Shown piece by piece: positions 19,390 to 31,402 of a stretch of DNA of 64,000 bases (the stretch's first letter is position 1; each line of letters starts with the position of its first letter). The notes below the pieces were generated by a model that saw nothing but the letters and a program-made list of their open reading frames with translations, did not search any database and had not been told where the DNA came from. The translations under genes were made by a program, and so were the position numbers. Origin of the DNA: an uncultured Lachnospiraceae bacterium (GTDB taxonomy: Bacteria; Bacillota; Clostridia; Lachnospirales; Lachnospiraceae); assembly GCA_944383265.1 (NCBI GenBank), contig CALWOX010000001.1:421983-485982 (forward strand), written 5' to 3'.

Positions 19390-19710
19390 TATACTGCTGA
19401 AAGTTACATCACAATGTCATATGAATATAATTCGGATACAGTCTCCTTTACCGGGAATTATGTAGACATAGTCTTTGCCCTCCTAAAATGAAAAGATTGG
19501 TTGTCTAATTTTAAATCATATGAGAAATGATTCTGCGTAATTACTATAATATTAAAAATATGGTGGTTCAACAACCGGTATGAGAGAAGACGAGGCGTAT
19601 GAAAAGTTCCTGGAGACTTACAGAAAGGCAGAGGAGATAATTTCGAGGACGAAAAAGTGATTTACACTGACATAGAAATACAACAGACATTGTAACGGAG
19701 AACATTGCTT
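19390..19710. other. Intergenic stretch with a 26-codon open frame
   Basis: About 320 bp. The only coding-like piece is 19580-19660, which would encode 26 residues (MREDEAYEKFLETYRKAEE...) with heptad-like character but no clear ribosome binding site; it resembles the tail of a lost gene. The remainder shows no clear structure. Confidence 0.4.
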
Positions 19711-20601
19711 ATGACAGAGATAAGATCTCTTTCAGATTATATTAATTATTTGGATACCTTGCAGTCCACATATCCTATGCAACGGTACATAGTTCCCTCG
19801 ACATTTTTCCGAGGCCAAGCTGACAAAGATTGGAAGCTCTCGCCAAAGCTTTACCGTGAGGGTCTTATAAAAATGGAAGGAGCCATGATCAAAGAAGTAA
19901 TGCATTTGTCCCCTGAGGAATTTGAGATGGGCCGATTTGATGTTTTGGCAAAGCTGCAGCACTATGGATTTCCGACGAGATTGTTGGATGCCACATCTAA
20001 TCCTTTGGTGGCGTTGTATTTTGCTTGCACAGGGGAAAATGAGTCAGAAAAAGACGGGGCAGTATATGTGTTTCCAAACCTGCCTGCTTCATGGTCGGAT
20101 GATGCTCTTGTGGAACTTATAATGGACTATGTTTTTGAATATACTCCTGACAACCTGTGTTTGGAGGATTTTTTGCAGAATGTAAAGCTGAAATATAAGT
20201 CTGCAGCAGGCAGAGCGATGCCTGAATCAATTGATTTGCTGATGTACTATTTAAAGATCCCTGCCTTGGCGGTCGTACCAAAAAGAAGCAATGCGCGCCT
20301 TGCAGCTCAAGATGGAGCTTTCTTTCTGTTCGGCATGAAACTGCTGGCCAAAAAGGTCAGTGATAATCCGGGAACCTATGGCAAGGAATACTATTCTTTC
20401 GGACCTGTCGAGATCGAAAACCACAGGGATATGTGGCATTTGAGCGACAAGCTTATTGTGCCTTCGGATTGTAAGGAAAAGATACTCGAGCAGCTTGACA
20501 CTCTTGGAGTAAATGAGCAGAGGCTTTTCCCTGATATAGAGCATCAGTTGAAGTATGTTTGGGAGAAATATGCGGTTACTCTGCAGGACAAAGGAGTTTA
20601 A
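19711..20601 (+). CDS. FRG domain-containing protein
   Basis: A 296-residue protein with the FRG domain. The defining STFFRGQADKDWKLSPKLYREG lies near residue 30, followed by LAKLQHYGFPTRLLDATSNPLVALYFAC near residue 75. FRG proteins are widespread in accessory and defence regions and resemble ADP-ribosyltransferase-type folds; their substrate is generally not known. ATG 19711 has CGGAGA ten bases upstream and is preferred to a TTG at 19705. It precedes a toxin-antitoxin pair in the same direction. Confidence 0.82.
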   Translation: MTEIRSLSDYINYLDTLQSTYPMQRYIVPSTFFRGQADKDWKLSPKLYREGLIKMEGAMIKEVMHLSPEEFEMGRFDVLAKLQHYGFPTRLLDATSNPLVALYFACTGENESEKDGAVYVFPNLPASWSDDALVELIMDYVFEYTPDNLCLEDFLQNVKLKYKSAAGRAMPESIDLLMYYLKIPALAVVPKRSNARLAAQDGAFFLFGMKLLAKKVSDNPGTYGKEYYSFGPVEIENHRDMWHLSDKLIVPSDCKEKILEQLDTLGVNEQRLFPDIEHQLKYVWEKYAVTLQDKGV

Positions 20602-20656
20602 TTGACGTATATTCATTCTTGTAGTACAATGTATTACAAGAATAGGAGGTTATGCC

Positions 20657-20878
20657 ATGTCATTTTCAATAAGATTAACTGACGAGGAAAAAGCTCTTGC
20701 TGACAGCTACGCAAAGCTTCACTCCATTTCTCTCGCCGAGGCATTTAAAAGGGCGTTGTTTGAACGAATTGAGGATGAATATGATATTACTGTGGGAGAA
20801 GACGCTTATAATGATTATGTGAAAAGCGGCAAAAAGAGCAGGCCCGCTTCCGAGCTGTGGAAGGAACTCGACTTATGA
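20657..20878 (+). CDS. RelB-like/DUF6290 antitoxin
   Basis: A 73-residue ribbon-helix-helix-type protein beginning MSFSIRLTDEEKALADSYAKLHSISLAEAFKRALFERIEDEYD, the pattern of DUF6290-family antitoxins. The N-terminal strand pairs to bind the operator and the C-terminal part (SRPASELWKELDL) would wrap the toxin. ATG 20657 follows AGGAGG. Its stop overlaps the toxin start by four bases (ATGA), the usual coupling. A short inverted sequence (CTTGTAGTACAATGTATTACAAG) just upstream is a candidate autoregulatory operator. Confidence 0.85.
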   Translation: MSFSIRLTDEEKALADSYAKLHSISLAEAFKRALFERIEDEYDITVGEDAYNDYVKSGKKSRPASELWKELDL

Positions 20879-21144
20879 TATATAGTGTTGAAACTACAGA
20901 AAGGTTTGATAAAGAGTTCAAGAAACTTGACAGATATACACAGCGGATGACAAAAGCTTGGATAGAGAAGAACCTTGAGGGATGCGAGGAGCCGAGACGG
21001 CAAGGGAAAGCACTTACGGCAAATCGTAAGGGACAATGGAGATACAGGATTGGAGATTATAGGCTTATATGTTTGATAGAGGACAATAAGCTGATAATAC
21101 TCGCACTTTCTGTAGGACACAGAAGGGAGATTTACAACGGATAA
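20875..21144 (+). CDS. RelE/ParE-family toxin
   Basis: An 89-residue protein of the RelE/ParE superfamily: VETTERFDKEFKKLDRYTQRMTKAWIEKNL, then the strands GQWRYRIGDYRLICLIEDNKLIILALSVGHRREIY. Basic and aromatic residues in the last block are those used by RelE for ribosome-dependent mRNA cleavage. ATG 20875 overlaps the antitoxin stop. A strong terminator follows directly, so the pair forms its own unit, 126 bp before cas3. Confidence 0.85.
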   Translation: MIYSVETTERFDKEFKKLDRYTQRMTKAWIEKNLEGCEEPRRQGKALTANRKGQWRYRIGDYRLICLIEDNKLIILALSVGHRREIYNG

Positions 21145-21170: not shown

Positions 21171-21270
21171 CCAATTCACTAAAAGGCAAATATAAGGTTA
21201 AAGTGCTTAGAACTTATGTGATATATGGTTTTATATTATCGATACATTATTTTATTTGGAGATAATCAGT

Positions 21271-23412
21271 ATGGCGTATTTGGCGCATCTTACCGAAGAC
21301 AGGGAGCAGACTGTTAAAGAGCACCTTATGGGAACCGCAAAACTGGCAGCAGAGTTTGCAGGACAGTTCGGATGCAGTGATTGGGGTTACTGCTGCGGGA
21401 TGCTTCATGATATAGGGAAGTATTCCGAGGCCTTTCAGTCCCATCTTAGAAATAAAGACAATAAAAAAGTGGACCATTCCACTGCCGGAGCTCAGGTCTG
21501 CGAAGAGATAGGCGGAGCTTATCGATATATGGAGGCCTGCATTGCAGGACATCATGCAGGTTTGCCTGATTATGGCGGAACGGGAAGTATGTCCGACGAA
21601 GCTTCTCTACATGGCAGACTACTCAAACATATAGAGGATTTCAGCCCATATAAATCTGAGATAGAGATCCCTAAAGTGGAAACCGCTCCCTTTGATCCCT
21701 GCTGTGTAAAAGATTCGGGTTTTTCCTTAAGCGTTTTCATTCGCATGATTTTTTCATGTCTTGTGGATGCGGATTACCTTGATACCGAAAAGTTTATGAC
21801 TGCCGGACAGGTTGACCGTGACAGTGGAGAAAGTATAGATTTGCTTTATGATAAGCTTATGGATCATATCTCCGGTTGGCTTTCGTGCTATGATGATAAA
21901 ACCATAAATGGGAGAAGGTCAGAGATACTTAGGAGTTGTCTTGACAAGGCTAACACACAAAGAGGGCTTTTCAGGCTGACGGTACCTACCGGAGGAGGGA
22001 AGACTATGGCATCACTTTCTTTTGCGCTGAGACATGCAAAGGAAAATCATATGAACAGAGTCATATATGTTATTCCCTATACCGGTATCATTGAACAAAA
22101 CGCAAAGGTATTCAAGGAAAAACTGGGAGAGGAAAATGTCCTTGAGGACCATTATAATGCGGATTATAAGACTTCAGAGGAGCTGACTTCGATGTACAGA
22201 GCTTCGGAAAACTGGGACAAGCCTGTAGTGGTCACAACAAATGTTCAGTTTTTCGAATCCTTATTTTCAAATAAGCCTTCAAAATGCAGGAAATTACATA
22301 ATATAGCAAACAGTGTAATTGTTTTTGATGAGGCCCAGATGCTTCCGACAGATTATCTGAAACCCTGCATATATATGATGGAGGAGCTTATCAGAACCTA
22401 TCGTGCGAGCATTGTGTTATGTACGGCTACTCAACCGGCACTGCAGCAGTTTTTTTCTCCGGATATGGAAGCGGTCGAGCTCTGCCCGAGAATGGAAGAC
22501 CAATTTGATTTTTTCAAAAGAACAGAGTTTGATGATGATGGCTTTATAACAGAGGAAGAGCTTGTCACGAGATTAAACAAAGAAAATCAGGCTCTGTGTA
22601 TAGTAAATACCAGGAAAAGAGCCCAGTCCTTATATAATAAGGTCGATTCTGACGGATCATATCACCTTTCTACCTGTATGTATCCTGAACATCGCAGGAG
22701 GGCGCTTGATGAGATCAGAATGAGACTCAAGGAAGGTAAACGCTGTGTGGTCATATCTACAAGCCTGGTGGAGGCAGGAGTAGATCTGGATTTTGAAACA
22801 GTTTACAGACAGCTTGCGGGAGTAGATTCCATACTTCAAGCTGCCGGAAGATGTAACAGGGAGGGGAAGCGAGCTTTAGCAGACAGCAGGGTCCGGATAT
22901 TCAGATTTAGAGATGATGAACGCATTCCGGGACAGATGCAGCAGATTGAAACAACATCGGTTCTTCTTAAAGAAGGAATTGATATATCTTTGCAGGAAGG
23001 CGTAAAAGATTACTTTACAAGGTTATATAAGCTTATAGACAGAACTCTTGATAAAAAGGAAATATTGGATAAATTTCATAAGTATCCTTATTTTGAGTTT
23101 TCTTCTGCTGCGGGAGATTTCAAGCTTATAGAACAAAATACGTACACTGTTTTTGTGGCAAAAACGGAAGAAGCCAAGTCACTGCTGTGCAGAATGAAAA
23201 ATCAGGAGTTTTCTAAAAGCCTTATGAGAAAAGCGGGACAGTACTGTGTACAGGTCCATGAGAATATTCTGAACCAATTATACAATTCAGGGAAAGCAGA
23301 ACAGCTTTCTGCAGAAATTCAAGATTTATATGTATTACTCGATGAAACGTGGTATACGGAAAAGGTTGGACTAAAAATGGACGATATCTCAGGAATTCCT
23401 GTATTTTTATGA
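21271..23412 (+). CDS. cas3: Type I-C CRISPR helicase-nuclease Cas3
   Basis: A 713-residue Cas3. The N-terminal HD nuclease has LHDIGKYSEAF (H46, D47) and the later GHHAG motif. The superfamily 2 helicase has Walker A GGGKT at 241-245, the DEAQ box at 353-356, the CTATQ motif, and VISTSLVEAGVDLDFETVYRQ with QAAGRCNREG. Cas3 is recruited by target-bound Cascade and degrades the non-target strand. ATG 21271 has GGAGA eight bases upstream; TTG 21256 is less likely. Unusually, a strong terminator and 315 bp separate it from cas5c, so it is transcribed apart from the Cascade genes. Confidence 0.95.
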   Translation: MAYLAHLTEDREQTVKEHLMGTAKLAAEFAGQFGCSDWGYCCGMLHDIGKYSEAFQSHLRNKDNKKVDHSTAGAQVCEEIGGAYRYMEACIAGHHAGLPDYGGTGSMSDEASLHGRLLKHIEDFSPYKSEIEIPKVETAPFDPCCVKDSGFSLSVFIRMIFSCLVDADYLDTEKFMTAGQVDRDSGESIDLLYDKLMDHISGWLSCYDDKTINGRRSEILRSCLDKANTQRGLFRLTVPTGGGKTMASLSFALRHAKENHMNRVIYVIPYTGIIEQNAKVFKEKLGEENVLEDHYNADYKTSEELTSMYRASENWDKPVVVTTNVQFFESLFSNKPSKCRKLHNIANSVIVFDEAQMLPTDYLKPCIYMMEELIRTYRASIVLCTATQPALQQFFSPDMEAVELCPRMEDQFDFFKRTEFDDDGFITEEELVTRLNKENQALCIVNTRKRAQSLYNKVDSDGSYHLSTCMYPEHRRRALDEIRMRLKEGKRCVVISTSLVEAGVDLDFETVYRQLAGVDSILQAAGRCNREGKRALADSRVRIFRFRDDERIPGQMQQIETTSVLLKEGIDISLQEGVKDYFTRLYKLIDRTLDKKEILDKFHKYPYFEFSSAAGDFKLIEQNTYTVFVAKTEEAKSLLCRMKNQEFSKSLMRKAGQYCVQVHENILNQLYNSGKAEQLSAEIQDLYVLLDETWYTEKVGLKMDDISGIPVFL

Positions 23413-23425
23413 TAACAAAAGCAAT

Positions 23426-23520
23426 ATACGAAAAAGGCGGGAGCAAATAAGAAGCTTCTGCCTTTTTCGTACTTTTTGCCAATATAAACTTACGTATTTC
23501 AACCCACAGCATTTGCTGAC
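23426..23520 (-). ncRNA. Candidate CreR-type Cas-regulating RNA (degenerate repeat plus guide)
   Basis: Read on the minus strand from 23520: GTCAGC, forming a stem CAGC/GCTG with loop AAAT, then TGGGTTGAAAT (23506-23496). This handle differs at one base from the array repeat end TGGATTGAAAT, which Cas5c/Cas5d leaves as the 11-base 5' handle after cutting at the stem base. The guide follows from 23495 (ACGTAAGTTTATATTGGC...), about 25 bases, and the RNA would stop at the hairpin 23470-23428. A perfect TATAAT (23533-23528) places the start at about 23520. Guide positions 1-11 and 13-16 match plus-strand DNA from 23582, next to TTC. Family knowledge: CreR and CreA RNAs use repeat-like handles and short seed matches to guide Cascade to promoters without cutting. 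Expression is not shown. Confidence 0.72.
23428..23470. terminator. Bidirectional terminator between cas3 and the cas5c promoter region
   Basis: An 11-bp perfect stem (ACGAAAAAGGC/GCCTTTTTCGT) with a partly paired loop; the T-rich arm serves the plus strand and the A-rich arm gives a U-rich arm for minus-strand transcripts. It ends cas3 transcription and would also end the minus-strand CreR-like RNA. Confidence 0.85.
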
Positions 23521-23527
23521 AATTTGC

Positions 23528-23533
23528 ATTATA
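23528..23533 (-). promoter_or_regulatory. Minus-strand -10 box for the CreR-like RNA
   Basis: A perfect TATAAT on the minus strand, seven bases before the first base of the degenerate repeat, so the predicted RNA begins exactly at the repeat. The -35 region is weak (TACCTT at 17-base spacing). Confidence 0.6.
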
Positions 23534-23542
23534 CATGAAATT

Positions 23543-23572
23543 TTGATATAAAGGTATAAAAATTATTACAAT
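23543..23572 (+). promoter_or_regulatory. Predicted promoter of the cas5c-cas2 operon
   Basis: TTGATA (23543-23548), an 18-base spacer and TACAAT (23567-23572), each one or two bases from consensus. The predicted start near 23579 falls on the PAM of the CreR-like target. The cas5c start codon is about 150 bases further on. AT-richness makes other promoter placements possible. Confidence 0.55.
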
Positions 23573-23578
23573 ATTAAA

Positions 23579-23597
23579 TTCACGTAAGTTTAAATTG
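23579..23597 (+). promoter_or_regulatory. Predicted Cascade binding site matching the CreR-like guide
   Basis: TTC (23579-23581) is the usual type I-C PAM. The following bases ACGTAAGTTTA match guide positions 1-11, position 12 differs, and ATTG matches 13-16; pairing then ends. Position 12 belongs to the every-sixth flipped-out set in type I Cascade. Bound Cascade would cover the predicted transcription start, and the short match should block Cas3 recruitment or cutting. Confidence 0.7.
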
Positions 23598-23727
23598 AAT
23601 TAAATAGAAAAAACTATTGTTTTTTTACAAAAATTATAGTATATATAGTTATATAGCACAATAAACAGCAAAGCTTTGTTAAAAAATTATAAAAATCTAA
23701 TAAAAAATGAAGAAAGGAGACGAATAT

Positions 23728-24390
23728 ATGAGCAAAGGAATAAAAATCAGGCTTTGGGGCGATTATGCGCTTTTCAGTCGGCCTGAAGCTAAGGTTGAGC
23801 GATATACATATGACGTGATCACCCCCTCTGCAGCGAGGGGGATCATGGACAGCATTTTCTGGCACCCGGGACTCCGGTGGGAAGTGACTAAGATCCATGT
23901 TATGAAACCAATCAAATTTACGAGCGTAAGAAGAAATGAAGTAAAAAGCAAAATTCTTGCGGGAAATGTACTGCAGGAATATAACGGCTCAAACAAGGAT
24001 TTTTATATAAGTACAAAGGCTGATATCGTGCAGAGGGCATCGGTCATACTCTGTGATGTGGAATATGTGATAGAACTCCATTTTTCAATGACGGATAAAG
24101 CAAACTCTACTGACAACCCGGCAAAGTTCAAGGATATGGCGTTAAGAAGATTGAAAAACGGAGCCTGCTTCTCGACACCATACTTTGGATGCAGAGAGTT
24201 TCCCGCAAATTTTGAACTCTATGAAAAAGACGAGATAAAGACGGCATATGAGGATGTCCCGGAAAAGGATCTCGGATTTATGCTTTATGACATGGATTAT
24301 ACGACCGGTAGCACGCCTCAGCCTATGTTTTTCAGGGCAATAATGAAACGAGGTACCTTGGACCTTAGAAATTGCGAGGTGATAAGATGA
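23728..24390 (+). CDS. cas5c: Type I-C Cas5c (Cas5d), crRNA-processing Cascade subunit
   Basis: A 220-residue Cas5 with the I-C opening IKIRLWGDYALFSRPEAKVERYTYDVITPSAARGIMDSIFWHPG. In type I-C this subunit replaces Cas6: it cuts the pre-crRNA at the repeat stem base and stays bound to the 5' handle. ATG 23728 follows AAAGGAG. It is the first gene of the cas5c-8c-7c-4-1-2 operon, and its stop overlaps the cas8c start by ATGA. It would also be the enzyme that recognises the CreR-like repeat. Confidence 0.94.
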   Translation: MSKGIKIRLWGDYALFSRPEAKVERYTYDVITPSAARGIMDSIFWHPGLRWEVTKIHVMKPIKFTSVRRNEVKSKILAGNVLQEYNGSNKDFYISTKADIVQRASVILCDVEYVIELHFSMTDKANSTDNPAKFKDMALRRLKNGACFSTPYFGCREFPANFELYEKDEIKTAYEDVPEKDLGFMLYDMDYTTGSTPQPMFFRAIMKRGTLDLRNCEVIR

Positions 24391-26117
24391 TTTTAAGAGA
24401 GCTCCTAATTCTTTATGAGAATCTTCTGAAAAGGAATGAGGCCGCCGCAAGAGGATGGTGTCATGCTAAGGTTTCATATGAGATAGCTCTTTCTCCTGAA
24501 GGGAGGATTCTTGGAGTTTTTTCTTTGAAAACTGAAGAGACAAGAGGAAAGAAAACTGTATTTCTGCCCCAAAGTATTGTTGTTCCTGAAATGGTCACAA
24601 GATCCTCCGGAGTTTCCGCCAATTTTTTGTGTGACAATTCCAAATATATGCTGGGAATAGACAGAAACGGTACTGACCAAAGAACAGTGGAATGTTTCAA
24701 AGCAGCAAAAGAGAAGCATATGGCGGTTTTAAGCGGGAGCGAAGGAGAAATACCCTGTGCTGTTCGTAGCTTTTTTGAAAATTGGGATCCTGAAAATGTG
24801 GAAAGCTGTGCTGAAGTCATGAGAGTCCGTGATGACATTACGGACGGAGGAAATATCATATTTTCTGTAAAGGGAGTCCGTGCACAGGAGGACTCTCGGG
24901 TAAGAGATGCTTGGAATAAGTATTATTTGGAAAATGAAGACGGAGAGAGTGCCGTGTGCCTTGTAACCGGAGAACACTGTCGGATATCCCGGCTTCACAA
25001 GGCCATAAAAGGAGTTGCGGGCGCACAGTCAAGCGGAGCACCGCTGGTATCATTTAATGCACCTGCCTTCGAGTCCTATGGCAAGGAACAAAGCTATAAC
25101 GCTCCGGTTGGAAGATATGCAGAGTTTGCGTACACTACAGCTCTTAATTATCTGCTTGATCAAAAAAAATATGTTTTTCGCATCGCAGATGCAACGGTGG
25201 TCTTCTGGGCGGAGAGTGCAGAACCTGTATATCAGGATTTTTTCTCCATGGCGATTGATCCTCCCGATAATCAGGAAGAGATCAGGAACTTTTTTGAAAG
25301 GATCACGAGCCATAAGGCGGTAAATATTGACAATTTTAAACTGAATCCTGATCAGAGCTTTTGCATTTTGGGATTATCACCGAATGCTGCGAGGCTTTCT
25401 ATAAGATTTTTTTACAAGGATACTTTTGGAAACATAATTAAAAATATTTCAAGACATTATGACAGGATGAGGATCGTAAAGCCTGCTTGGGAAAATCGGG
25501 AATATCTTGGAGTATGGGCCATGTTGGCGGAGACAAGGAATAAGAATTCAAGTGATAGCTCTCAGATTTCCAATATGGCGGCAGCAGTGCTAAAAGCCAT
25601 TTTATCTGACAGCAGATACCCTGCAAGCTTATATTCAGATACTCTTATCAGGATACGTGCGGAACAGGGAAAAATAACCTGGGGACGGGCTTCGATCATT
25701 AAGGCATATTTGATCAAAAATTATGCGATGGATTTGAAAGGAGAAAAATATATGGGATTAGATACGGATAATAAGGACAGGGCATATTTGCTTGGACGAT
25801 TATTTTCTGTTTTGGAGGCTATACAGAAAGAGGCTAATCCGAATATCAATGCCACCATAACCGACAGATATTTTAATTCGGCATGTTCAACGCCTGCATC
25901 GACTTTTCCGATATTGGTCAGGCTTAAAAACAGTCATATGAAGAAAATAGAAAGAGATAAACCAACAGCAAAGATTTATTATGAAAAACTTCTTTCGGAA
26001 ATTATGGGTAAGCTGGAGTGTTTCCCGCATAGATTATCGCTGGAAGAGCAGGGAATGTTCATACTCGGATATTATCATCAGACACAGAAACGCTATGAGA
26101 AGAAGGAGGATAAGTAA
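24387..26117 (+). CDS. cas8c: Type I-C Cas8c (Csd1), Cascade large subunit
   Basis: A 576-residue protein matching Csd1/Cas8c in size and position, beginning MILRELLILYENLLKRNE, a common opening of the family. Later segments include SFNAPAFESYGKEQSYNAPVGRYAEFAYTTALNYLL and FCILGLSPNAARLSIRFFY. Cas8c reads the PAM, and in many I-C systems an internal translation product (Cas11c) comes from its 3' end. A possible internal start is ATG 25752 (MGLDTDNKDRAYLLGRLFSVLEAIQKEANP), preceded by AGGAGA, which would give about 121 residues, the size expected of Cas11c. Confidence 0.92.
   Translation: MILRELLILYENLLKRNEAAARGWCHAKVSYEIALSPEGRILGVFSLKTEETRGKKTVFLPQSIVVPEMVTRSSGVSANFLCDNSKYMLGIDRNGTDQRTVECFKAAKEKHMAVLSGSEGEIPCAVRSFFENWDPENVESCAEVMRVRDDITDGGNIIFSVKGVRAQEDSRVRDAWNKYYLENEDGESAVCLVTGEHCRISRLHKAIKGVAGAQSSGAPLVSFNAPAFESYGKEQSYNAPVGRYAEFAYTTALNYLLDQKKYVFRIADATVVFWAESAEPVYQDFFSMAIDPPDNQEEIRNFFERITSHKAVNIDNFKLNPDQSFCILGLSPNAARLSIRFFYKDTFGNIIKNISRHYDRMRIVKPAWENREYLGVWAMLAETRNKNSSDSSQISNMAAAVLKAILSDSRYPASLYSDTLIRIRAEQGKITWGRASIIKAYLIKNYAMDLKGEKYMGLDTDNKDRAYLLGRLFSVLEAIQKEANPNINATITDRYFNSACSTPASTFPILVRLKNSHMKKIERDKPTAKIYYEKLLSEIMGKLECFPHRLSLEEQGMFILGYYHQTQKRYEKKEDK
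25752..26117 (+). CDS. cas11c: Likely internal translation product Cas11c within cas8c
   Basis: An in-frame ATG at 25752 lies six bases after AAAGGAGA inside cas8c. The product would be 121 residues, starting MGLDTDNKDRAYLLGRLFSVLEAIQ and running to the cas8c stop. Known biology: type I-C Cascades contain a small subunit made by internal initiation in cas8c. The position, length and ribosome binding site here fit well. Confidence 0.72.
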   Translation: MGLDTDNKDRAYLLGRLFSVLEAIQKEANPNINATITDRYFNSACSTPASTFPILVRLKNSHMKKIERDKPTAKIYYEKLLSEIMGKLECFPHRLSLEEQGMFILGYYHQTQKRYEKKEDK

Positions 26118-27029
26118 ATGAGTGAGGCTATTAAAAACAGATATGAATTTGTGATACTTTTTGATGTGGAAAACGGTAATCCTAATGGGGATCCGGATGC
26201 AGGAAACATGCCGAGGATAGATCCTGAAAGCGGGCTTGGTATTGTGACAGATGTGTGCATTAAACGTAAGATCCGTAATTATGTGGAGACTGTAAAAGAA
26301 GGCTGTAAGGGATATAAGATATATATAAGAGAAGATGTGCCGCTAAACAGAAGTGACAGGGAAGCCTGTGCAGATATCGGAGTTAATGAGACGGATGATA
26401 AGAAAGTTACAGAAACGTTGAAGACGCTTAAGAAGAATGATCCTAACGTGGATATCAAGCTGAGGGACTATATGTGTGAAAATTATTTTGATATCAGGAC
26501 TTTTGGGGCTGTTATGACCACCTTTGTCAAAGCTTCTTTGAACTGTGGTCAGGTAAGAGGACCTGTTCAGCTGGGCTTTGCGAGAAGCATAGACCCAATC
26601 CTGAGCCAGGAGGTTACAATTACTCGTGTGGCAATAACAACGGAAAAGGATGCGGAAAATAAGAGTACAGAAATGGGAAGAAAGAATATCGTGCCTTATG
26701 GTCTTTACAGGATGGAAGGCTATATCTCTGCCAATCTTGCAAGGAGGGTTACCGGTTTTAATGAAGAAGATCTTGAGCTTTTATGGGAAGCCATAATCAA
26801 TATGTTTGAAAATGACCGGTCTGCTGCAAGGGGCAAGATGGCGGTCAGAGATTTGATCGTATTCAAACACAGTAGAGAGTTGGGAGATTGCCCTGCTTAT
26901 AAACTGTTTGATGCTGTGGAGATCAAGAAGGATGATACTGTGGAATATCCCAGAAGGTATCAGGACTATAGTGTGACGATCAATAAAAAGGCTATTCCGG
27001 AGTCTGTAGAGGTCATGAGGATGGTGTAA
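26118..27029 (+). CDS. cas7c: Type I-C Cas7c (Csd2), Cascade backbone
   Basis: A 303-residue Cas7 with the Csd2 opening RYEFVILFDVENGNPNGDPDAGNMPRIDPESG and the later DIRTFGAVM and GQVRGPVQLGFARSIDP blocks. Several copies line the crRNA guide and impose the six-base periodicity in target pairing. The ATG at 26118 follows the cas8c stop directly, with AAGGAGG upstream. Confidence 0.95.
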   Translation: MSEAIKNRYEFVILFDVENGNPNGDPDAGNMPRIDPESGLGIVTDVCIKRKIRNYVETVKEGCKGYKIYIREDVPLNRSDREACADIGVNETDDKKVTETLKTLKKNDPNVDIKLRDYMCENYFDIRTFGAVMTTFVKASLNCGQVRGPVQLGFARSIDPILSQEVTITRVAITTEKDAENKSTEMGRKNIVPYGLYRMEGYISANLARRVTGFNEEDLELLWEAIINMFENDRSAARGKMAVRDLIVFKHSRELGDCPAYKLFDAVEIKKDDTVEYPRRYQDYSVTINKKAIPESVEVMRMV

Positions 27030-27694
27030 TGGAATATTCAGAAGATGATTACCTGATGATTTCAGGTATTCAGCATTTTAAATTCTGCCGAAGACAGTGG
27101 GCGCTGATACACATAGAGCAGCAGTGGAATGAAAATGAACATACAGTTATCGGCGAATTAATGCATAAAAGGGCTCACGACAGGTATATAACGGAAAAAC
27201 GAAAGGACCTGTTAACAGTAAGGGCACTCCCTGTCTCTTCAAGGAGACTTGGTATAAGCGGAGAGTGTGACATAGTTGAATTCCATAAAGTAGAGGATGG
27301 AATAAAACTACATGGACACAGGGGACAATATAAAATATATCCGGTTGAGTATAAAAAAGGAAGGCCCAAACTCACGAGTGAGGATAAGCTTCAACTGACT
27401 GCCCAGGCGCTATGCCTGGAGGAAATGTTTTCTACGAGTATTACTGAAGGAGCAATTTACTATGGAGAGACTAAAAGGAGAGAGACGGTGATACTTGATG
27501 AAAGTCTGCGAAGAGAAACCGAGGATATTATAAAAGAAATGCATGAGTATTTTCAGCGCAGATATACACCCAAGGTCAGAGCGGGTAAAGCCTGTAATTC
27601 TTGCTCGCTAAAGGATATCTGTCTTCCGAGACTGAATAAGACAACCACTGTAAAAAAATATATTGATGATGCTCTTCAGGAGGACCTGAGATGA
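27029..27694 (+). CDS. cas4: Cas4 PAM-processing exonuclease
   Basis: A 221-residue Cas4 with C20 near the N-terminus (HFKFCRRQW) and three more cysteines at 189, 192 and 198 (CNSCSLKDIC) for a [4Fe-4S] cluster. The RecB nuclease core is ECDIVEFHK and YPVEYKKGRPK. Cas4 trims prespacers and selects those with a PAM. It overlaps cas7c by one base and cas1 by four. Confidence 0.95.
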   Translation: MEYSEDDYLMISGIQHFKFCRRQWALIHIEQQWNENEHTVIGELMHKRAHDRYITEKRKDLLTVRALPVSSRRLGISGECDIVEFHKVEDGIKLHGHRGQYKIYPVEYKKGRPKLTSEDKLQLTAQALCLEEMFSTSITEGAIYYGETKRRETVILDESLRRETEDIIKEMHEYFQRRYTPKVRAGKACNSCSLKDICLPRLNKTTTVKKYIDDALQEDLR

Positions 27695-28722
27695 AGAAGT
27701 TACTTAACACTCTTTATATTATGTCGGAGAACAGCTACCTTTCTTTGGATGGGGAAAATGTAGTCATCATAGATGATAAGGAGGAGGTCGGAAGGCTACC
27801 CCTGCATAATCTGGAAGGAATAGTTTCTTTCGGATATAGAGGAACAAGCCCTGCTCTTATGGGAGCATGTGCTGAAAGAAACATTTCTTTATGTTATTTG
27901 AATCCACAGGGGAAATTTTTGGCAAGAGTGACAGGAAAAGTCAGAGGAAATGTTATCCTTAGAAAGCAGCAGTGTTTGAGCAGTCAGAATGAAAAGATCA
28001 GCCTTGAAATAGCAAAAAATTGTATACTGGGAAAAGTACACAATTCAAGGTGGGTCTTGGAAAGGGCTATAAGAGACCATAGTATGCAGATAGATACCGA
28101 AAAAGTCAAAAATGCATCTGATCAATTAAAATTATATATCGGGCTAATACGGAATGCGGAGAGTATGGATAGCCTTCGCGGATATGAGGGTAAAGCTGCA
28201 AATGAATATTTTGGGGTGTTTGACCAACTTATACTTCAGCAGAAAAAGGATTTTTATTTTTCCGGAAGAAATAAAAGGCCGCCGATGGACCGGGTAAATG
28301 CCCTTTTATCATTTACATATACTCTTTTGACAAACACCATTACCTCTGCCTTGGAAACCGTGGGTTTGGATCCCTATATCGGCTATTTGCATACGGACAG
28401 ACCGGGAAGGGTATCCTTGTCTCTGGACATGATTGAAGAACTGAGGTCGGTACTGGCGGACAGGTTTGTACTGTCGTTGATAAACAAGCGAATGATAAGC
28501 GGAAGGGATTTTACTGTTAAAGAAAATGGCGCTGTACTTATGAGCGATGATCTAAGGAAAAGGGTTCTCGTGGAATGGCAAAATAGGAAGAAAGAAGTAA
28601 TTACACATCCATATCTGAACGAAAAGGTTGAATGGGGTATAGTACCTTTTGTGCAGGCCATGTTGTTGGCTCGTTACCTCAGAGGAGATTTGGATGAGTA
28701 TCCGGTATTTTTATGGAAATGA
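27691..28722 (+). CDS. cas1: Type I-C Cas1 integrase
   Basis: A 343-residue Cas1 beginning MKKLLNTLYIMSENSYLSLDGENVVI. The metal-binding glutamate lies in the YEGKAANEYFGVFDQ region, with the histidine and acidic residue in LHTDRPGRVSLSLDMIEEL. Cas1 with Cas2 inserts spacers at the leader end. It overlaps cas4 by ATGA. Confidence 0.96.
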   Translation: MKKLLNTLYIMSENSYLSLDGENVVIIDDKEEVGRLPLHNLEGIVSFGYRGTSPALMGACAERNISLCYLNPQGKFLARVTGKVRGNVILRKQQCLSSQNEKISLEIAKNCILGKVHNSRWVLERAIRDHSMQIDTEKVKNASDQLKLYIGLIRNAESMDSLRGYEGKAANEYFGVFDQLILQQKKDFYFSGRNKRPPMDRVNALLSFTYTLLTNTITSALETVGLDPYIGYLHTDRPGRVSLSLDMIEELRSVLADRFVLSLINKRMISGRDFTVKENGAVLMSDDLRKRVLVEWQNRKKEVITHPYLNEKVEWGIVPFVQAMLLARYLRGDLDEYPVFLWK

Positions 28723-28726
28723 GGCG

Positions 28727-29023
28727 ATGATATTGTTGGTGTTGATTACTTATGATGTTAATACGGAAACTGCGGCTGGAAAAAAGAGACTTCGACAGGT
28801 TGCCAAACAATGCGTCAATTATGGAAGGAGAGTACAGAATTCGGTATTTGAATGCATATTGGATAATGCTCAATGTATTATGCTGAAATCAATGCTAACG
28901 GATATAATTGATGAAGAAACAGACAGTCTGCGTTTTTATTATCTTGGCAATAAGTATCAGACAAAAGTGGATCATGTTGGAGTGGAACGAGGAATTTCCG
29001 CAGATCAGCCATTGATATTTTAG
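28727..29023 (+). CDS. cas2: Cas2 adaptation protein
   Basis: A 98-residue Cas2 starting MILLVLITYDVNTETAAGKKRLRQVAKQCVNYGRRVQNSVFEC, with the conserved aspartate after the first strand. It bridges two Cas1 dimers. ATG 28727 lies four bases after the cas1 stop; longer in-frame starts would overlap cas1 deeply. It is the last gene before the leader. Confidence 0.95.
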   Translation: MILLVLITYDVNTETAAGKKRLRQVAKQCVNYGRRVQNSVFECILDNAQCIMLKSMLTDIIDEETDSLRFYYLGNKYQTKVDHVGVERGISADQPLIF

Positions 29024-29195: not shown

Positions 29196-29830
29196 GACGC
29201 TCCCCTCGCGGGAGCGTGGATTGAAATATCCGTCAAACTCTCCACTATACTTGGAATAACCTGACGCTCCCCTCGCGGGAGCGTGGATTGAAATATATGT
29301 TAATAGCCTGCTATTATATATTGGCAGTGGACGCTCCCCTCGCGGGAGCGTGGATTGAAATACGTCAGAGGCGGCAGCTGTAATAACGTCAAGGGACGCT
29401 CCCCTCGCGGGAGCGTGGATTGAAATGCCCTCCTTTTAGTTGTTTTCCTAAATTTTTATTGACGCTCCCCTCGCGGGAGCGTGGATTGAAATTACAATGC
29501 CCACGCCCAATGTAGGAGAGCTCTGCGACGCTCCCCTCGCGGGAGCGTGGATTGAAATCGTAAACGTGGGGCTACAGATACAGTAATGCCACGACGCTCC
29601 CCTCGCGGGAGCGTGGATTGAAATATCCGTCAGACCGTCTCTCGCCCACCCCTCCAATGACGCTCCCCTCGCGGGAGCGTGGATTGAAATCATAAAATTT
29701 GTCACGAAATTTGTCACGGAAATTGACGCTCCCCTCGCGGGAGCGTGGATTGAAATCCAGAGGTGCGGAACAATGCACAAAATAGCCCTCAGACGCTCCC
29801 CTCCTCCCCTAGTGGGAGCTTAAATTAAAG
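29196..29830 (+). CRISPR. Type I-C CRISPR array, nine identical repeats plus a degenerate last one
   Basis: Nine identical 32-bp repeats (GACGCTCCCC...GTGGATTGAAAT) start at 29196, 29263, 29330, 29395, 29461, 29527, 29593, 29659 and 29725. They separate nine spacers of 35, 35, 33, 34, 34, 34, 34, 34 and 35 bp. The tenth unit at 29792 is degenerate: its first 12 bases match, then it carries an insertion (CTCCCCTAGT region) and a changed end, TTAAATTAAAG in place of TGGATTGAAAT. The repeat forms the stem CGCTCCC/GGGAGCG and has the I-C 3' end. Orientation is fixed by cas2, the leader and the decayed distal repeat. Confidence 0.97.
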
Positions 29831-30271: not shown

Positions 30272-31402
30272 ATGCCCAAAACAGCCAACAAGGGAGAATG
30301 GAGTGAAATATATGCGGCTCTCCGAATCCTCGGAGAGGGAAAGCTCTATATGGCTGATGCCGACGGTAATAAGACTCCGGATGAATGGATGGACGTACAG
30401 GAGCTCATCAGGCATGAATCCGCAAACAGGAGGGTCACCTACAGAATAGATAAAGAAACTTCTTATATTGATATAGCTGTAAATAATATGTATAAAACCT
30501 CTGTTTCCATATCCGAGTTTTCCATCATGGCTGACAGGCTGAGAGAGGAGATAATGAGCGGAAGGGGGCGGGCCTTTACGATTTCGCCTGAAACTGAGGA
30601 ATTTCTTTCAAAAGTGGAGATAGAAAATGTTAAGGCAAAAAGTATAGACAAGAGTGATATCTTTCTTTCCGCGCGGGATCCCAGATCCTCCATAATAAGG
30701 AAGAATATCGGCTTTTCCGTAAAGTCCGAATTCGGGCATGATCCCACACTCTTTAACACTGCAAAGGCATCCGCAGTTGTCTATAAGGTCCATGGAATGA
30801 ATGATGAGCTTATGGAAAAGATAAACAACCTCTATGATTCCAAAAATCATGTGGCTGTGTCGGATCGCTGTGATGCACTAAAAAGAGCGGGATGTATCCT
30901 TGAATTTGTGGGCTTTCCTGTAGTCCTGCGGTCAAAGGAAAAGGTGGCGGCCTTTGAAGAAAATCTTGACATGATAAATCCGAGGCTTCCGAGAGTGATA
31001 GAGTGCATGCTTTGGAATCACTTTTTTGAGTTTGAGTCAAAGACTGACCTTGATGTAGTCACAAAGCTGGTGGCTGAGATAAACCCATGTAATATATCCC
31101 GCCCTGAAGAAAAATATGAGTATATGATAAAGGCTTTTATATATGCCGCATACTGTGGGATGACTGCTTCGAAGCTCTGGGACGGAAACAGTAAGGTAAA
31201 CGGAGGCTTCATAAAGATAAGCGGAGACGGAGAGGTAACTGCTCATTATGCATTGGAATCCGATGCCTTTAAATCATATCTTTTCAAGAATTGCTATCTT
31301 GAGTTTCCCTCTACTGACGAGGCACATGGAAATTACGCAAAAGTATACAAAGAGGGGGATGAGTATTACTTTCGATTAAATTTTCAGATAAGGTATAAGT
31401 AA
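30272..31402 (+). CDS. HpaII-family type II restriction endonuclease
   Basis: A 376-residue protein matching the HpaII endonuclease family, whose members open with NKGEWSE-Y-ALL-LGEGKLY; here it is NKGEWSEIYAALRILGEGKLYMADADGN. A nuclease-like core is visible in DIFLSARDPRSSIIRKNIGFSVKSEFGHDPTLFNTAKAS, with SVK as the candidate catalytic strand. HpaII cuts CCGG. ATG 30272 follows GAGGAGG. No C5-cytosine methyltransferase flanks it, although CCGG occurs often in this window, so the protecting enzyme must be elsewhere or the endonuclease must be inactive. No damage is seen in the frame. Confidence 0.82.
   Translation: MPKTANKGEWSEIYAALRILGEGKLYMADADGNKTPDEWMDVQELIRHESANRRVTYRIDKETSYIDIAVNNMYKTSVSISEFSIMADRLREEIMSGRGRAFTISPETEEFLSKVEIENVKAKSIDKSDIFLSARDPRSSIIRKNIGFSVKSEFGHDPTLFNTAKASAVVYKVHGMNDELMEKINNLYDSKNHVAVSDRCDALKRAGCILEFVGFPVVLRSKEKVAAFEENLDMINPRLPRVIECMLWNHFFEFESKTDLDVVTKLVAEINPCNISRPEEKYEYMIKAFIYAAYCGMTASKLWDGNSKVNGGFIKISGDGEVTAHYALESDAFKSYLFKNCYLEFPSTDEAHGNYAKVYKEGDEYYFRLNFQIRYK

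What the first reader, a model, noticed from the sequence alone, without database searches (positions are those of the whole stretch)
23426..23597. A CreR-type RNA that may let type I-C Cascade repress its own operon
Seen in sequence: the minus strand carries TATAAT, seven bases, then a degenerate CRISPR repeat (stem CAGC/GCTG, handle TGGGTTGAAAT, against TGGATTGAAAT in the array), a guide of about 25 bases and a terminator hairpin. The guide matches plus-strand DNA at 23582: positions 1-11 and 13-16, next to a TTC PAM. The only mismatch in the first 16 is position 12, which type I Cascade flips out. The target lies on the predicted start of the cas5c-cas2 transcript. Established: CreR and CreA RNAs guide Cascade to promoters through short seed matches. 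Inference: Cascade loaded with this RNA represses cas5c-8c-7c-4-1-2, giving autoregulation that is relieved when crRNA is abundant or an anti-CRISPR removes Cascade. Cas5c itself would process the RNA.
Basis: partly seen in the sequence, partly recalled or inferred. Interest (0 to 1): 0.95.

Follow-up and report, generated by a model that had tools for sequence, protein, structure and literature searches.

The report
Type I-C CRISPR self-silencing guide RNA
Beside its CRISPR genes this bacterium carries a short guide-RNA-like sequence that matches DNA just upstream of those same genes, and the same kind of matched pair recurs in 30 other bacterial loci, so the CRISPR complex likely uses the RNA to turn down its own production.

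Summary
Minus strand 23520-23426 holds, behind a TATAAT, a 25-nt shrunken type I-C repeat, a guide and a hairpin. The guide matches a TTC-flanked site 146 nt upstream of cas5c at 15 of its first 16 positions; the miss is position 12.

Of 165 de-duplicated Cas5c loci, 31 (window included) hold a handle plus a guide matching a nearby TTC site at 13 or more of 15 scored positions; guides swapped between loci do so in 7 of 37,431 trials. In pairs chosen by total matches, mismatches pile up at positions 6 and 12 (23 of 34 each), which type I Cascade does not read. The element sits where a 200-699 nt gap precedes cas5c (20 of 29 loci; 24 with weaker forms), rarely where the gap is under 100 nt (2 of 105).

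This is a type I-C form of CreR. Guided targeting is strongly supported; transcription, Cascade loading and repression are inferred. In one Lachnospiraceae branch the element faces a predicted ADP-ribosyltransferase-like two-gene cassette (PADLOC PDC-M10) ahead of cas5c.

The parts
23528..23533 (-). -10 box (TATAAT) of the predicted CreR promoter
   Evidence: sequence; in 16 of the 29 elements examined a >=5/6 TATAAT starts 14-16 nt before the mini-repeat stem, background 1.9% per position
23496..23520 (-). 25-nt degenerate type I-C repeat (GTC, 4-bp stem CAGC/GCTG, 11-nt handle TGGGTTGAAAT)
   Evidence: sequence against array repeat
23473..23495 (-). CreR guide; first 16 nt match the target except position 12
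23426..23472 (.). 13-bp inverted repeat, likely terminator hairpin of CreR and perhaps of cas3
   Evidence: not called by the consensus scan
23579..23581 (+). PAM TTC
   Evidence: TTC is the commonest PAM in the PAM-free scans of relatives
23582..23616 (+). CreR target: matched part 23582-23597, full predicted R-loop to 23616
23543..23572 (+). best predicted cas5c operon promoter TTGATA-18-TACAAT
   Evidence: prediction only
21256..23412 (+). cas3 (HD and helicase), upstream of the element
23728..24390 (+). cas5c, first gene behind the target
   Evidence: TIGR01876
24387..26117 (+). cas8c
   Evidence: TIGR01863
26118..27029 (+). cas7c
   Evidence: TIGR02589
27029..29023 (+). cas4, cas1, cas2
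29196..29823 (+). CRISPR array (nine full repeats listed plus the start of a tenth; end approximate)

Best explanation
A shrunken CRISPR repeat and guide on the minus strand at 23520-23473 match a TTC-flanked site upstream of cas5c, and the RNA predicted from them would be loaded into type I-C Cascade and likely repress the cas5c-8c-7c-4-1-2 operon. Shown: the anatomy; the match; recurrence in 31 of 165 Cas5c loci with guides that differ but match their own target; free drift at guide positions 6 and 12; and overlap of the target with the best predicted promoter footprint in 25 of 31. Inferred: transcription from TATAAT starting at about the first base of the repeat; trimming by Cas5c to an 11-nt handle; use of the hairpin in place of a second repeat; binding of Cascade through about 16 bp, expected to be too short a match to trigger Cas3 cutting; and blocking of RNA polymerase. 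Abundant crRNA, or an anti-CRISPR that disables Cascade, would then relieve repression and raise Cascade and adaptation proteins without touching cas3.
For:: repeat, handle, guide, PAM and target in place; only exact site in the held genome; 31 of 242 handle sites with >=13/15 TTC-flanked matches against 7 of 37,431 swapped trials (24 against 0 at >=14); pairs chosen by total matches (>=12 of 17; 34 pairs) mismatch at position 6 in 23, at 12 in 23, at each other position of 1-16 in 0-6, at 17 in 13; of 449,404 guide starts tested with no handle asked, 43 reach >=14/15; 22 follow a handle with at most one mismatch, a motif present at 72 of the 449,404 starts; 15 of the rest are in L011 (they look like CRISPR repeats), 6 are other; between L017 and L057 guide changes at positions 2 and 14 are mirrored in the target, the one at position 12 is not; gap before cas5c 200-699 nt, 20 of 29 strict; gap <100, 2 of 105; 25 of 31 overlap promoter -40..+20, expected 11.2 (sd 2.65). 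(PMC8501985, passages): in a type I-B CreA, positions 1-5 and 7-11 are needed and 6 and 12 are not, and a one-repeat form ends in a terminator.
Against: No RNA or expression data. 134 of 165 loci lack a strict element (some because too little upstream DNA is held). The mini-repeat stem is absent from the minimum-energy fold. The window's cas5c promoter is a modest prediction, and a fixed-offset promoter profile gave no clear spacing. The nearest other Cas5c seen is 72% identical, so guide and target could not be followed in near relatives of this strain. Some relatives are weaker: L007 has a run of 9, L055 matches 7 of 7 seed positions but 9 of 15 overall.
Confidence: 0.88

Rival explanations
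1. The guide and target are two arms of an inverted repeat that a protein regulator binds; the handle resemblance is incidental.
For: In the window the two copies form an inverted repeat 86 nt apart, and the region is AT-rich.
Against: In 18 of the 31 strict loci guide and target lie on the same strand, so the copies are direct, not inverted. By the search terms one copy stands next to TTC and the other behind a handle, far more often than chance allows, and every sixth position drifts. No protein operator predicts this.
Confidence: 0.03
2. It is a CreA-type antitoxin: the target promoter makes a small toxic RNA (CreT) between 23600 and 23727, and Cascade represses it to make the system addictive.
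For: Same anatomy as CreA. About 110 nt of sequence without a listed gene lie between the R-loop and cas5c, enough for a small RNA.
Against: No plus-strand ORF of 80 aa or more between target and cas5c (shorter ORFs were not listed). In 12 of the 31 strict loci the target begins only 19-60 nt from the cas5c start, leaving little room for a separate toxin gene.
Confidence: 0.06
3. The RNA mainly titrates Cascade, as a decoy like a phage Racr, and the match to the cas promoter is secondary.
For: It is a solitary repeat unit behind a promoter-like box, as Racrs are (PMC10651486 passages).
Against: A decoy needs no guide, PAM or target, yet these are matched in far more loci than chance allows. 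It lies in the host cas locus.
Confidence: 0.04
4. It is a decayed leftover of an old array or of a self-targeting spacer, with no present role.
For: The repeat is degenerate and single.
Against: Guides and targets differ between loci but stay matched, with mirrored changes in a related pair and free drift mainly at positions 6 and 12; decay would not keep this.
Confidence: 0.02

Closest known systems
CreR, cas-regulating RNAs (2023 paper 'Widespread RNA-based cas regulation ...', year recalled; seen only through citing reviews; original not held). One review names types I-B, I-E and V-A, another says type I and type V-A
   Same: crRNA-like RNA beside the cas operon; partial, seed-type complementarity to the cas promoter; no toxin gene found at the target in the window
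   Different: Type I-C, where Cas5 processes crRNA. One shrunken repeat plus a hairpin; the published form is called a mini-CRISPR, and that it has two repeats is my recollection. Tied to a split layout in which cas3 lies outside the regulated unit
CreA of CreTA (type I-B, haloarchaea; PMC8501985 and PMC9458426, passages)
   Same: One-repeat form ending in a terminator; TTC PAM; positions 1-5 and 7-11 matched, 6 and 12 not required
   Different: CreA represses a toxin RNA gene; here the next gene is cas5c
CrePA (review section)
   Same: Cascade plus a crRNA-like RNA represses a promoter, relieved by anti-CRISPRs
   Different: CreP is described as a protein toxin, typically with a KilA-N domain; no such gene stands at the window's target. 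The PDC-M10 cassette in Lachnospiraceae relatives is a possible analogue with an unrelated protein
Racr, phage RNA anti-CRISPRs (PMC10651486, passages)
   Same: Solitary repeat unit behind a promoter; a type I-C example exists
   Different: Racrs are encoded by viruses or plasmids and inhibit; this one is in the host cas locus and has a guide with a PAM-flanked target

Membership tests
CreR | crRNA-like unit (degenerate repeat plus guide) beside the cas operon | tested here: met
CreR | PAM-flanked seed match to the upstream/promoter region of its own cas operon | tested here: met
   the promoter itself is predicted
CreR | Pairing pattern of type I Cascade (1-5, 7-11; 6 and 12 free) | tested here: met
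   mismatches at 6 and 12 in 23 of 34 pairs each, other positions of 1-16 in 0-6
CreR | Guide and target co-vary across relatives | tested here: met
CreR | RNA is made, processed and bound by Cascade | not testable with these tools
   needs small-RNA sequencing and pull-down
CreR | Cascade-dependent repression of cas genes, relieved by crRNA or anti-CRISPR | not testable with these tools
   needs a reporter
CreTA (CreA) | Target promoter drives a toxic RNA or peptide | tested here: inconclusive
   no plus-strand ORF of 80 aa or more between target and cas5c; a small RNA or short peptide toxin cannot be excluded
CrePA | Target promoter drives a protein toxin (typically KilA-N) | tested here: not met
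   first gene behind the window's target is cas5c
Racr | Repeat unit encoded by a mobile element, acting without a DNA target | tested here: not met
   lies between cas3 and cas5c and has a matched target

The most novel reading that the evidence does not exclude
Type I-C systems with a split cas3 carry a built-in Cascade thermostat, and in one Lachnospiraceae branch it doubles as a dead-man's switch: the same CreR holds down a two-gene cassette (ADP-ribosyltransferase-like DUF3990 protein plus partner, PADLOC PDC-M10) placed ahead of cas5c, so that a phage anti-CRISPR which disarms Cascade would release both fresh Cascade and a back-up toxin-type defence from one promoter.
Probability: 0.35. 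Interest if true: 0.85.

Novelty: new variant of a known kind. Interest (0 to 1): 0.68.

Why it matters
One review read here names types I-B, I-E and V-A for CreR autoregulation. The evidence here puts the same logic in type I-C, in 31 loci whose named records bear seven phylum-level labels, in a minimal form: one short repeat, a guide and a hairpin. It gives a simple comparative rule (handle, TTC target, free sixth positions), separates control of Cascade from control of cas3, and bears on anti-CRISPR studies and on endogenous I-C editing, since disabling or flooding Cascade would be expected to change its own expression. The PDC-M10 association makes a testable link between Cascade sensing and a back-up defence.

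Tried and rejected
Inverted-repeat operator, decayed array, Racr-like decoy and CreA antitoxin were weighed and ranked lower (rivals). Rfam had no hit above gathering score in 23300-23800 (two hits far below it, E 0.19 and 0.22). A second exact target of the same guide, in the window or genome, was sought and not found. CreR upstream of cas3 in one-operon loci: 1 strict hit (L071) in 34 testable loci, plus one weak (L048, 11 of 15). An average promoter profile at a fixed offset from the target gave peaks barely above the null and no clear spacing. In six Lachnospiraceae relatives (L002, L005, L008, L087, L092, L093) the freely chosen best promoter puts the R-loop at about -70 to -33; a window site that would give a like geometry (TTTTTA-16-TATAGT) scores lower than TTGATA-18-TACAAT, so I did not adopt it. 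The original CreR paper is not held, so I cannot say whether its supplements list type I-C. Paper searches for a type I-C CreR listed none by title or shown abstract; most listed papers were not opened.

Error found and corrected: loci from the genome search on the minus strand are not re-oriented, so read the wrong side for those; redo the counts and are the ones used. The 29 elements lay in rightly oriented DNA but are a slightly different set from the 31 strict loci (they include L007, L025, L026, L027, L040 and lack L053, L075, L087, L090, L093, L100, L150). Seven of 172 regions were dropped as near-duplicates before counting. 'cas3' in the gap classes is any long upstream ORF (400 aa or more, or 150 or more if cut off by the end of the held DNA), not checked by profile. 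The hairpin search has no control.

Full report
What is there. The window holds a complete type I-C system: cas3 (21256-23412), then cas5c, cas8c, cas7c, cas4, cas1, cas2 (23728-29023), identified with NCBIfam models, and an array with repeat GACGCTCCCCTCGCGGGAGCGTGGATTGAAAT. Between cas3 and cas5c lie 315 nt. On their minus strand are TATAAT (23533-23528), seven bases, a 25-nt shrunken repeat GTCAGC-AAAT-GCTG-TGGGTTGAAAT (23520-23496), a guide (from 23495) and a 47-nt inverted repeat with a 13-bp stem (23472-23426). On the plus strand TTC (23579-23581) is followed by a site that matches the guide at positions 1-11 and 13-16. The site is the only exact match in the held 2.3-Mb genome when positions 6 and 12 are left free. 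TTC is a PAM reported for a type I-C system (PMC8406640, start of abstract in the listing).

Comparison set. The last three searches gave at most 30 loci each, of 61, 48 and 99 genomes with a match. With the window this made 172 regions; after orientation and removal of 7 near-duplicates 165 remained. The window's family is Lachnospiraceae by inference: two same-family genomes gave regions near-identical to those of Enterocloster hominis and Faecalicatena faecalis.

Is it more than chance? I asked for a handle within two mismatches of TGGATTGAAA (GAAA kept), and a TTC-flanked site within 500 nt matching the guide at 13 or more of the 15 positions 1-17 without 6 and 12. 31 of 242 handle sites pass, in 31 of 165 loci; when each guide is tried on the other loci at the same relative place, 7 of 37,431 pass. 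At 14 or more the figures are 24 and 0. Asked the other way round, with no handle required, 43 of 449,404 guide starts reach 14 or more: 22 follow a handle with at most one mismatch (such handles stand at 72 of the 449,404 starts), 15 are in L011 and look like CRISPR repeats, and 6 are other. In the scan that did not ask for a PAM, TTC is the PAM of the best pair in 33 of 76 loci with any pair; those 76 include many chance matches.

Why Cascade. Pairs chosen by total matches (12 or more of 17, TTC-flanked; 34 pairs in 34 loci) mismatch at position 6 in 23, at position 12 in 23, at 17 in 13, and at each other position from 1 to 16 in 0 to 6. In a type I-B CreA, the 6th and 12th bases, which do not take part in base pairing, can be changed, and changes at any of 1-5 and 7-11 cannot (PMC8501985, passages). 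No protein operator or plain antisense RNA predicts this pattern. Between two Selenomonas-labelled loci, L017 and L057, guide changes at positions 2 and 14 are mirrored in the target and the change at position 12 is not.

Architecture across relatives. In the 29 elements examined, a stem of 3 bp or more precedes the handle (3 bp only in L041, L056 and L067; no control), GTC stands 10-27 nt before the handle in 26, a TATAAT-like box (>=5/6) starts 14-16 nt before the stem in 16 (background 1.9% per position), and a stem of at least 8 pairs follows the guide in 28 (6 pairs in L047; no control). This suggests that transcription starts at about the first base of the repeat and ends in a hairpin that stands in for a second repeat.

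Where it occurs. With a gap of 200-699 nt between the long upstream ORF (taken as cas3) and cas5c, 20 of 29 loci are strict hits; four more are weaker (L025, L040) or have TTT as PAM (L026, L027), making 24 of 29. With a gap under 100 nt, 2 of 105 are hits (L071, L075), both more than 2.3 kb upstream of cas5c; among 34 such loci with enough DNA held upstream of cas3, one strict element is found there (L071). For many other one-operon loci the DNA upstream of cas3 is not held, so absence there is not shown. The element thus goes with a cas5c that has its own upstream gap. Strict hits include records labelled Lachnospiraceae and relatives, Selenomonas, Parafannyhessea, Treponema, Glaesserella, Accumulibacter, Lentisphaeraceae, Phycisphaeraceae and Bacteroidales (titles; several are MAGs, whose labels may be wrong; the phylum count of seven is mine).

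Target and promoter. Taking the single best sigma-70-like promoter near each target, the 35-nt R-loop overlaps -40..+20 in 25 of 31 strict loci; random placement gives 11.2 (sd 2.65). With a narrower footprint, about the -10 box to +20, it is 15 of 31 against 8.0, and 11 of these 15 are among the 16 minus-strand targets. In six Lachnospiraceae loci with plus-strand targets the R-loop abuts the predicted -35 box. A fixed-offset profile gave no clear spacing. In the window the best prediction puts the R-loop at about +3 to +37.

How it likely works. The RNA would be trimmed by Cas5c (type I-C uses Cas5 for crRNA processing; PMC10651486 passages), held by Cascade, and brought to the cas5c promoter by about 16 bp of pairing, short of what is usually needed for Cas3 cutting (general knowledge, not tested here). 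More crRNA, or anti-CRISPRs, would draw off or disable the repressor, as a review describes for CreR. cas3 would stay outside the loop. All of this is inference from anatomy and precedent.

A side finding that may matter more. In L004, L005, L008, L087, L092 and L093 (strict) and L007 and L055 (short matches), the element faces not cas5c but a two-gene cassette placed ahead of it. The first gene is DUF3990 (PF13151; three of the loci scanned), a family of the Pfam ADP-ribosyltransferase clan (PMC7955679 passage). Its model (pLDDT 81) has RES toxin, PARP and exotoxin A entries as its first 13 Foldseek matches, folds that I know as ADP-ribosyltransferase-like, but with TM-scores of about 0.40-0.46 and none at E below 0.001. 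The second is a helical protein with weak DUF3791 similarity in 5 of 11 members and no convincing fold match. PADLOC models place the L005 pair in candidate defence system PDC-M10. L089 carries the pair with the first seven residues of DUF3990 unmatched and has no detectable element; L003 starts too close to the cassette to tell; L136 has the partner without a DUF3990 hit and a weaker element.

Verdict. A CreR of a type I-C system, in a minimal one-repeat form. Membership by anatomy, pairing and co-variation is met; membership by activity is untested. A review names I-B, I-E and V-A; I could not read the original and so do not claim that type I-C has never been listed.

Noticed in passing
L005:5108-5999; also L003, L004, L007, L008, L055, L087, L089, L092, L093: A two-gene cassette (DUF3990 ADP-ribosyltransferase-like protein plus a 150-aa partner; PADLOC PDC-M10A/B) sits ahead of cas5c in one Lachnospiraceae branch, in eight loci behind a CreR target, so the CreR-targeted promoter would drive it together with cas5c.
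   Followed up: partly
L089:300-869: The DUF3990 gene of this locus does not align over its first seven residues and the upstream gap has no detectable CreR; element and cassette may have decayed together.
   Followed up: no
L071 and L075, about 2.3-2.4 kb upstream of cas5c: In two loci with little gap before cas5c the CreR-like pair lies far upstream, in L071 near the start of the cas3-like ORF, so the whole operon may be the regulated unit.
   Followed up: partly
window 23614-23641: A near-perfect AT-rich palindrome (ACTATTGTTTTT...AAAAATTATAGT) lies between the CreR target and cas5c; it could be an operator or a leader hairpin.
   Followed up: no
window 30272-31402: HpaII-type restriction endonuclease gene (PF09561) downstream of the CRISPR array.
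   Followed up: no
window 19705-21144: FRG-domain protein (PF08867) and a RelE/StbE-family toxin gene just upstream of cas3.
   Followed up: no
L026 and L027: Two otherwise typical elements have TTT instead of TTC before the target (14 and 15 of 15 positions matched), which may show a relaxed PAM for binding.
   Followed up: no
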